Shown: piece by piece, positions 4,951-11,931 of the stretch
Position numbering within the stretch: the stretch's first letter is position 1
How the letters are laid out: each line of letters opens with the position of its first letter
Assembly: GCA_913061095.1 (NCBI GenBank)
Contig: CAJXVM010000003.1
Location: 224,472-288,471 of the forward strand
DNA from: an uncultured Ignavibacteria bacterium
GTDB taxonomy: Bacteria; Bacteroidota; Ignavibacteria; SZUA-365
Reading direction: 5' to 3'
DNA length: 64,000 nucleotides
Position numbers and translations under genes: made by a program
Notes under the pieces: generated by a model
Told to the model about the DNA's origin: nothing
Seen by the model: only the letters and a program-made list of their open reading frames with translations
Databases searched by the model: none

Positions 4951-6441
4951 ATGCCACGACTCCCATCAAGTGTATACAATCCTCTCAGTCTGGTCGGTGC
5001 GGGAATAGCCCTCGTCTCCTTCGGGACTGTGCTCGTGTTTTTTGCGATGGACATGCTCGGGTACACCGACTCTCCGTACCTCGGCATCTTCACGTACATG
5101 ATCATTCCGGCTGTGCTGATTCTCGGTCTGCTGCTGATCCCTGTCGGCATGTACTGGGAACGTCGGCGTATCAAGAAAAACAAGGGTGAGAAACGGCGCT
5201 TCATGGTGCTGGATCTCAACGACCCGCGCAACCGCATGGCGGTGATGGTTTTCACGGTGGGGACGATGCTGCTGATCGTGGTTTCCGCCGCGGGTACCTA
5301 TCAGGCTTACAATTATTCCGAATCGGTGGAATTCTGCGGCGAGGTGTGCCATGAAGTCATGTACCCTGAGTACATGGCGTATCAGCATTCCCCGCATGCC
5401 CGCGTTCCCTGCGCGGAGTGTCACATCGGCGAAGGGGCCGACTGGTTCGTCAAGGCCAAGATCTCGGGTGCATACCAGGTGTATTCGGTGGTCTTCAACA
5501 AGTATCACAAGCCGATCAAGACGCCGATCGCCAACCTGCGTCCGGCGCGTGAGACCTGCGAGGAGTGTCACTGGCCGAGCAAGTTCAGCAGCGACAAGAA
5601 ACTCGAGAAGGTGTACTTTCCGCTCGACACCGCCGATGCGCAGCCATGGAAAATCGTCATGGATGTCAAAATCGGCGGAGGACAGAGCGAGTTGGGTCCG
5701 ACCGAGGGCATTCACTGGCACATGAACACCGCCAACGACGTGCGGTACGTTGCCACCGACGACCGCCGGCTTGACATTCCGTATATCGAGTCGACGGGGC
5801 TCGACGGGAAGACAAAAATCTTCCGGGCGCGTGATATCGCATTCAGTGACGAGGAGATCGCGGCCTTCGAGATGCGGAAGATGGACTGCATCGACTGCCA
5901 CAACCGTCCCTCGCATATCTATTACCCGCCCTTCCGTACCGTCAACGACGCGATGGCGGTGGGGCGTATCGCGCCCGACCTGCCGAACATCCGCGCGATC
6001 GCCTCGCATGCACTCACGCGGGAGTACGATTCCCAGCGGCAAGCCTTGCGCACCATTCCCGATCTCGTGCGAAACAATTACCGCACGCACGCACCCGAGC
6101 TGCTCGAAACCCGGCGCACCGCCATCGATAGCAGCATCGTGGAGATCCAGCGTATCTATGAACGCAACTTCTTCCCTTCCATGCTTGTCACCTGGAAAGA
6201 GTACCCCAACAACATCGGGCACATGTATGACGAGGGCTGCTTCCGCTGTCACGACGGGCAGCACGTGACCGACGACGGCGAAGTGCTGAGCAACGATTGC
6301 AACATCTGCCATACGATTATCGTGCAGGGACCGCAGGGCGAGACCGTCAGCAGCCTCGATGGCATGCCCTTCCGACACCCGGCCGATATCGACGAGGTGT
6401 GGCGCGAGGTCCCCTGCTCCGACTGCCATCTCGGAGAATGA
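4951..6441 (+). CDS. NapC/NirT-type membrane-anchored multiheme cytochrome c
   Basis: N-terminal TM segments; CGEVCH (CX3CH) plus six CX2CH motifs (CAECH, CEECH, CIDCH, CFRCH, CNICH, CSDCH). Confidence 0.88.
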   Translation: MPRLPSSVYNPLSLVGAGIALVSFGTVLVFFAMDMLGYTDSPYLGIFTYMIIPAVLILGLLLIPVGMYWERRRIKKNKGEKRRFMVLDLNDPRNRMAVMVFTVGTMLLIVVSAAGTYQAYNYSESVEFCGEVCHEVMYPEYMAYQHSPHARVPCAECHIGEGADWFVKAKISGAYQVYSVVFNKYHKPIKTPIANLRPARETCEECHWPSKFSSDKKLEKVYFPLDTADAQPWKIVMDVKIGGGQSELGPTEGIHWHMNTANDVRYVATDDRRLDIPYIESTGLDGKTKIFRARDIAFSDEEIAAFEMRKMDCIDCHNRPSHIYYPPFRTVNDAMAVGRIAPDLPNIRAIASHALTREYDSQRQALRTIPDLVRNNYRTHAPELLETRRTAIDSSIVEIQRIYERNFFPSMLVTWKEYPNNIGHMYDEGCFRCHDGQHVTDDGEVLSNDCNICHTIIVQGPQGETVSSLDGMPFRHPADIDEVWREVPCSDCHLGE

Positions 6442-6580
6442 GGTCCGAAGAGAAAAAAGTATTGACCTTACTGGATTTATTGACAGGATTTTCACAATTT
6501 GCAGTGGCAATAATTGACTCTGCCAACTATTGCCATACAGACAACAGAAATCGACATCGCACATCTTCTCAGGCCCGTGT

Positions 6581-11078: not shown

Positions 11079-11079
11079 C

Positions 11080-11931
11080 ATGGCCGAGACGCAGCGAGTC
11101 ATCATCGAAAAGCATTTTCAGCGTTTCACACGTCTGGAGCGCCTGCTGCATATCCTGATGATCGTCAGCTTCATCAGTCTCGCACTGACGGGCATGACGC
11201 TGAAATTCTCCTACACCGGCTGGGCGGTTTTTCTTTCAAAGGTATTCGGCGGCTTCGAGTCTGCCGGGTACATCCACCGTGCGGCCGCCGTGATCATGTT
11301 CGGCATTTTCTTCGCGCATATCTACGACCTCGTCTTTACGAAGCGCCGGGAATACGGCAGCTGGAAAGCGCTGCTGTTCGGTCCGAACACCATGCTGCCG
11401 ACGAAGAAGGACTTCCAGGATTTCACGGCGTCGATGAAATGGTTCATCGGGCGTGGCGAGCGTCCCCAGTACGGACGCTGGACATACTGGGAGAAGTTCG
11501 ATTACTTCGCGGTGTTCTGGGGTGTGTTCGTCATCGGTTCGACGGGACTTACGCTGTGGTTCCCCGAGTTCTTCACCAATTTCATCCCCGGCTGGATGAT
11601 CAACGTCGCCACGATCATCCACAGCGACGAGGCGCTGCTGGCTACCGGATTCATTTTCACGGTGCATTTCTTCAACACCCATCTGCGTCCCGAAAAATTC
11701 CCCATGGACCTGGTGGTCTTCACCGGACGCATGCCGGTGCATGAGCTCAAACTCGACAAGCCCGAGGAATTCGAGCGCCTGAAGGCCGCGGGAAAACTCA
11801 AGGATTACCTGGTGGAGCCCTATCCCCCCGTCGTGATCCGCGCCATCCGCGTGTTCGCCTGGGCCGCCCTCGCCACCGGTTTCATGGCCGTGATCTGGAT
11901 CGTGTACGCGATGGTGTTTGCGTATCGATAA
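11080..11931 (+). CDS. cytochrome b561/formate dehydrogenase gamma-like b-type subunit
   Basis: Starts MAETQRVIIEKHFQRFTRLERLLHILMIVSFISLALTGMTLKF right after the preceding stop; GAGGAGG upstream; conserved His in TM helices. Confidence 0.82.
   Translation: MAETQRVIIEKHFQRFTRLERLLHILMIVSFISLALTGMTLKFSYTGWAVFLSKVFGGFESAGYIHRAAAVIMFGIFFAHIYDLVFTKRREYGSWKALLFGPNTMLPTKKDFQDFTASMKWFIGRGERPQYGRWTYWEKFDYFAVFWGVFVIGSTGLTLWFPEFFTNFIPGWMINVATIIHSDEALLATGFIFTVHFFNTHLRPEKFPMDLVVFTGRMPVHELKLDKPEEFERLKAAGKLKDYLVEPYPPVVIRAIRVFAWAALATGFMAVIWIVYAMVFAYR

What the first reader, a model, noticed from the sequence alone, without database searches (positions are those of the whole stretch)
4951..11931. Four-gene multiheme cytochrome operon with 38-39 c-type heme sites plus b-type membrane subunits
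Seen: four co-directional genes with short gaps; CXXCH counts of 6 (+1 CX3CH), 13 and 19, plus two b561-like membrane domains. Established: NapC/NirT proteins are quinol-oxidising heads that pass electrons to multiheme cytochromes. Inference: the architecture suggests a large quinone-linked electron conduit. No porin or recognisable terminal reductase (e.g. NrfA-like) sits next to it, so the acceptor is unknown.
Basis: partly seen in the sequence, partly recalled or inferred. Interest (0 to 1): 0.75.

Follow-up and report, generated by a model that had tools for sequence, protein, structure and literature searches.

The report
Quinol gates for extracellular electron respiration
Four neighbouring genes make the inner-membrane proteins (relatives of Geobacter's ImcH and CbcL) that most likely take electrons from the respiratory quinone pool and pass them toward a protein conduit out of the cell; the parts are of known kinds, but packed together in an unusual and widely conserved way.

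Summary
In detail: four co-directional genes at 4951-11931 carry 7 (6 CXXCH + 1 CX3CH), 13 and 19 c-heme sites plus two b561-type membrane domains. Gene A is not a generic NapC/NirT protein: it has the published ImcH signature (496 aa, 3 N-terminal helices, CX3CH + 6 CXXCH) and is about 40% identical over its full length to Geobacter-group copies. Genes C and D are two halves of a split CbcL with 19 hemes instead of 9: their alignments to CbcL meet end to end, D branches with CbcL, and fused versions exist in relatives. Gene B (13 hemes) is a second, diverged CbcL/MtrH/MtoC-type protein. The cluster is conserved across the class; in 29 of 65 loci a porin-cytochrome outer-membrane module lies in the same locus. 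The window's genome carries that module on another contig (C33:32962-36931), so the 'unknown acceptor' is most likely extracellular. Best reading: several menaquinol-oxidising gates, probably for different redox potentials, feeding extracellular electron transfer. All of this is sequence inference; activity, potential and direction were not tested. New variant of a known kind: the split 19-heme CbcL and the multi-gate locus were not found described in the texts searched.

The parts
4951..6441 (+). Gene A: ImcH-family inner-membrane heptaheme cytochrome (496 aa; 3 N-terminal helices, CX3CH at residue 129, CXXCH at 154, 203, 313, 430, 450, 489)
   Evidence: signature from PMC6295460
6587..8800 (+). 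Gene B: 13-heme cytochrome c domain fused to a b561/FdnI-type membrane domain (737 aa, signal peptide); diverged CbcL/MtrH/MtoC-type
8847..11078 (+). Gene C: 19-heme cytochrome (743 aa, signal peptide, one helix at residues 614-632, hydrophilic tail with MSPGGD repeats); c-domain half of a split CbcL
11080..11931 (+). Gene D: b-type cytochrome (283 aa); membrane half of a split CbcL
   Evidence: likely start one base after the stop of C

Best explanation
The operon encodes the inner-membrane entry of an extracellular-respiration chain. ImcH-type A, CbcL-type C+D (split in two genes, 19 hemes) and a second CbcL-type B each oxidise menaquinol at the membrane and pass electrons through their c-hemes into the periplasm. 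A periplasmic tetraheme and a porin-cytochrome conduit, encoded on contig C33 in this genome, then carry them across the outer membrane to an extracellular acceptor such as Fe(III)/Mn(IV) minerals or a partner cell. Shown by sequence: the heme motifs, the family relations, C+D as a split CbcL, the conserved locus, and the conduit genes in this genome. Inferred: menaquinol as donor, outward direction, division of labour by redox potential as in Geobacter, and a working link to the C33 conduit.
For: A: one hit per genome in six named Geobacter-group and Anaeromyxobacter genomes, 40-43% identity over most of the length; all seven heme motifs invariant including Geobacter-group copies; three helices. 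C+D: D is 43-46% identical to the last ~275 residues of the 9-heme CbcL of Geobacter-group genomes; in L137 (G. hydrogenophilus) C residues 369-650 match CbcL 31-321 and D 3-277 match CbcL 321-611, so the halves meet; D clusters with CbcL and B forms its own clade; C and D are fused in 11 of 65 loci. Four histidines are invariant in 60 of 60 b-domains, B and D alike. The B model matches the quinone-site subunit FdnI of formate dehydrogenase-N (1kqf_C, TM-score 0.81 on the target). Locus: of 65 D-bearing loci, C in 65, B in 53, ImcH in 42, porin in 29, many cut by contig ends; full order in L175 and L181. Conduit in this genome: C33:32962-36931, tetraheme, 436-aa barrel candidate, 11-heme, 5-heme lipoprotein. 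ImcH or D with the porin in 251 genomes: 124 of 142 with, versus 37 of 109 without ImcH/D. Roles in Geobacter: PMC12307469, PMC9129911.
Against: No activity, potential, expression or localisation data exist for this genome. In this genome and its family the conduit is not next to the operon. 37 class members have the porin without ImcH or D, and 18 have ImcH or D without the porin; the co-occurrence test is not corrected for shared ancestry. The barrel nature of the 436-aa protein rests on weak signals. The structure of C was poorly predicted, so its heme path is unknown.
Confidence: 0.72

Rival explanations
1. Same proteins, opposite direction: the operon takes electrons arriving from outside (Fe(II), a cathode or a syntrophic partner) and reduces the quinone pool.
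For: CbcL/MtrH/MtoC relatives occur in Fe(II) oxidisers and are proposed to work both ways (PMC6295460); CbcBA is proposed to run in reverse in Seep-SRB2 (PMC10553843).
Against: ImcH homologs have been implicated only in quinol oxidation so far (PMC6295460), and A is a full ImcH. Carbon-fixation genes were not looked for.
Confidence: 0.13
2. One reading: a single supercomplex in which A is the only quinol head and B, C and D are an electron wire downstream of it.
For: Short gaps and a conserved neighbourhood; in the window's own family the order A-B-C-D holds in 5 of 6 loci.
Against: B and D each have their own four-histidine b-domain of quinone-site type. ImcH is absent from 23 of 65 loci, some of them cut by contig ends, and ImcH occurs without D in 66 of 130 genomes.
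Confidence: 0.1
3. The operon serves a soluble periplasmic reductase (nitrite, nitrate, sulfur compound) rather than an extracellular acceptor.
For: A shows weak similarity to NrfH and NapC models; the genome has another NapC/NirT-family gene next to a 4-CXXCH, 522-aa ORF on contig C4, a candidate NrfHA.
Against: A scores far below the NrfH cut-off (45 versus 134 bits). No reductase gene adjoins the operon here, and the recurrent partner in relatives is the porin-cytochrome module.
Confidence: 0.05

Closest known systems
ImcH (Geobacter inner-membrane cytochrome)
   Same: Length, three N-terminal helices, CX3CH followed by six CXXCH, about 40% identity over the full length to copies in named Geobacter-group genomes.
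   Different: Encoded in one operon with two CbcL-type systems; redox role not tested.
CbcL of Geobacter (9-heme c domain fused to a diheme b domain)
   Same: C+D aligns along CbcL end to end; D 43-46% identical; the four b-type histidines are kept; D branches with CbcL.
   Different: Two genes instead of one; 19 hemes instead of 9; extra hydrophilic tail on C.
CbcL/MtrH/MtoC family in the wide sense (PMC6295460)
   Same: B has a multiheme N-terminal half and a b561 C-terminal half; 13 hemes and 737 aa lie inside the published ranges of 3-23 hemes and 416-1034 aa.
   Different: Only about 28-30% identical to Geobacter-group CbcL and in a separate clade.
Porin-cytochrome (Pcc) cluster of Ignavibacterium album, IALB_1837-1840 (PMC4245776)
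   Same: Relatives of the window carry tetraheme, porin, 14-heme of about 400 aa and outer-membrane cytochrome in one row; the published IALB_1838 is 400 aa with 14 hemes.
   Different: In the window's genome the module stands apart on contig C33 and its periplasmic member has 11 hemes; the I. album sequences themselves were not compared.
CbcBA of Geobacter
   Same: Two-gene c/b quinone oxidoreductase, like C+D in gene layout.
   Different: In the named Geobacter-group genomes D hits CbcL strongly and otherwise only marginally, so C+D is read as a split CbcL; no confirmed CbcBA sequence was compared.

Membership tests
ImcH (gene A) | About 495-519 aa with three N-terminal transmembrane helices | tested here: met
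   496 aa, three hydrophobic segments at 14-32, 45-63, 96-114; range
ImcH (gene A) | Atypical CX3CH next to the membrane domain plus six CXXCH | tested here: met
   invariant including Geobacter-group copies
ImcH (gene A) | Full-length similarity to Geobacter-group ImcH | tested here: met
   40-43%, one hit per genome; published inter-group range 31.5-49%. G. sulfurreducens itself was not returned by the collection.
ImcH (gene A) | Needed for acceptors above about -0.1 V | not testable with these tools
   needs genetics
CbcL (genes C+D) | Multiheme periplasmic domain followed by a b-type membrane domain with conserved heme-ligand histidines | tested here: met
CbcL (genes C+D) | Six transmembrane helices | tested here: inconclusive
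   hydropathy shows one helix in C and four clear ones in D
CbcL (genes C+D) | One polypeptide | tested here: not met
   two genes here; fused in 11 of 65 loci of the class. C+D is therefore called a split CbcL, not a CbcL in the strict sense
CbcL (genes C+D) | b-domain groups with CbcL in a tree | tested here: met
   local support 0.77 for the D+CbcL group, midpoint rooting
CbcL/MtrH/MtoC in the wide sense (gene B) | 3-23 CXXCH, 416-1034 aa, b-type membrane half with conserved histidines | tested here: met
   13 CXXCH, 737 aa, four invariant histidines
CbcL/MtrH/MtoC in the wide sense (gene B) | Groups with a named member of the family in a tree | tested here: inconclusive
   B forms its own clade apart from CbcL; MtrH and MtoC sequences were not in the tree
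CbcBA (genes C+D, considered) | Closest similarity to CbcB/CbcA rather than CbcL | tested here: inconclusive
   strong hits only to CbcL-type proteins; no confirmed CbcBA sequence compared
NrfH/NapC (gene A, considered) | Reaches the curated family cut-off | tested here: not met
   NrfH 45.3 bits against 134.2, NapC/NirT 19.6 against 310.6
Porin-cytochrome conduit (C33 module) | Adjacent porin-like barrel, periplasmic multiheme and outer-surface multiheme | tested here: inconclusive
   gene order and cytochromes met; barrel supported by an amphipathic pattern (z 2.7, relative 5.1) and a sub-cut-off Porin_4 hit in a relative; three weak Geobacter-group matches are porin-sized ORFs beside multiheme genes

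The most novel reading that the evidence does not exclude
The 19-heme arm of the split CbcL reaches most of the way across the periplasm and docks directly on the outer-membrane conduit, so that several quinol gates of different potential are wired into one fixed inner-to-outer-membrane complex instead of a diffusing cytochrome pool.
Probability: 0.15. Interest if true: 0.8.

Novelty: new variant of a known kind. Interest (0 to 1): 0.45.

Why it matters
Geobacter's ImcH and CbcL are studied as separate genes. Here their relatives sit in one operon, in a locus conserved across a class and joined in many relatives to the outer-membrane conduit. That gives a gene-order prediction of a complete quinone-to-outside path in a group where such paths are poorly known, and a natural split of CbcL into its c and b halves that can be expressed and tested one by one.

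Tried and rejected
Generic NapC/NirT or NrfH reading of A: rejected on signature and cut-offs. C+D as CbcBA: not favoured. Structure of C: too poor to use (mean pLDDT 63.9, pTM 0.38). Promoter and terminator scans gave about as many sites as shuffles. The Rieske/cytochrome b/11-heme module of relatives: no Rieske or cytochrome b match in this genome. The figures of PMC6295460, which may show related clusters, are not held, so priority for the multi-gate locus cannot be settled.

Full report
What is there. The window is C3:224472-288471 of a 4.61 Mb, 42-contig genome, GC 0.59. Four co-directional genes lie at 4951-11931. A has 6 CXXCH and 1 CX3CH, B 13 and C 19 CXXCH, D none. C and B have the two highest CXXCH counts of all ORFs in the genome. 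B and D carry a cytochrome b561 domain. Likely starts are 6587 for B and 11080 for D, giving gaps of 145, 46 and 1 bp. The nearest genes on both sides run the other way and belong to other families.

Gene A is an ImcH. The published signature is three N-terminal helices, CX3CH and six CXXCH in 495-519 residues (PMC6295460). A has all of these. Searches of six named genomes reached through a PpcA query gave one hit each at 40-43% identity. In an alignment with 25 relatives, four of them from the Geobacter group, all seven motifs are invariant.

Genes C and D are a split CbcL. D matches the C-terminal part of 9-heme, 617-646 aa proteins of those genomes at 43-46% identity, B only at about 28-30%. 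In the Geobacter hydrogenophilus copy (L137) the match of C ends at CbcL residue 321 and that of D begins there. In a tree of 60 b-domains D groups with the 9-heme CbcL proteins and B stands apart. Fused C-D proteins occur in relatives, in open frames of 926-995 aa. All 19 heme motifs of C are invariant in 30 sequences.

Gene B is a second CbcL-type protein. All 13 motifs are invariant in 34 sequences. The model (mean pLDDT 79.5) finds one PDB match below E 0.001, the membrane subunit of E. coli formate dehydrogenase-N, with TM-score 0.81 on that chain. The four histidines expected to ligate two b-hemes are invariant in B, D and all relatives used.

Gene order. In 251 genomes of the class D was found in 76. 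Loci of up to 20 kb were fetched and annotated. Of 65 loci with D alone or fused to a 19-heme domain, all have C, 53 have B, 42 have ImcH, 29 a porin and 21 a Rieske protein; many loci are cut by contig ends. In the window's own family five of six loci read A-B-C-D. Elsewhere the order B-C-D-ImcH-Rieske-cytochrome b-11-heme-tetraheme-porin-14-heme-outer cytochrome is seen complete in L175 and L181. The last four genes fit the published Pcc cluster of Ignavibacterium album, whose periplasmic member is 400 aa with 14 hemes (PMC4245776).

The conduit in this genome. C33:32962-36931 encodes a 192-aa tetraheme, a 436-aa heme-free protein, an 11-heme protein and a 5-heme lipoprotein, matching the module of relatives gene for gene. 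The 436-aa protein has a signal peptide and an alternating pattern typical of barrels (z 2.7, relative 5.1), and a relative gives a sub-cut-off Porin_4 hit. Weak matches in the Geobacter group fall on porin-sized ORFs beside multiheme genes in three cases. ImcH or D and the porin occur together in 124 genomes, ImcH or D alone in 18, porin alone in 37, neither in 72; shared ancestry is not corrected for.

How it most likely works. In Geobacter, ImcH serves acceptors above about -0.1 V, CbcL lower ones and CbcBA near -0.2 V, and both ImcH and CbcL pass electrons to periplasmic PpcA (PMC12307469; PMC9129911). By family membership the operon is therefore read as several menaquinol-oxidising gates feeding a periplasmic carrier and the outer-membrane conduit. 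The steps shown here are at sequence level; donor, direction and potentials are inferred.

Known or new. ImcH and CbcL homologs in Ignavibacteria and a Pcc cluster in I. album were already reported, and ImcH and CbcL homologs have adjacent accessions or near-by locus tags in Desulfuromonas species. A split CbcL with 19 hemes and the fixed multi-gate locus were not found in the texts searched, but the figures of PMC6295460 could not be seen.

Noticed in passing
window 3687-4298 (-): Tll0287-like lipoprotein (PF11845) with one CXXCH, divergent neighbour region of the operon; homologs lie near the operon in five same-family loci (L163-L167). Possible monoheme partner or sensor.
   Followed up: partly
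window 2919-3671 (+): Signal-peptide protein of about 250 aa ending in an aromatic residue, no Pfam match, conserved near the operon in six same-family loci; could be a small outer-membrane barrel.
   Followed up: no
window 10903-11078: The tail of gene C holds an MSPGGD repeat that is also open in a second frame, which creates a false early start for gene D.
   Followed up: yes
L036, L039, L169, L175, L181 and others: Relatives insert a Rieske protein, cytochrome b and an 11-heme cytochrome between ImcH and the conduit: a possible bc-type complex with an 11-heme electron acceptor.
   Followed up: partly
L214-L221 (family f40): Class members with a 7-9-heme CbcL of ordinary size beside an 8-heme, 478-511 aa protein and no B, C or ImcH in the locus.
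   Followed up: no
genome C17:13105-18233 and C18:61257-66416: Two clusters that look, from their first residues and a 5-heme ORF each, like alternative complex III, suggesting an aerobic or mixed respiratory chain; no family search was run.
   Followed up: no
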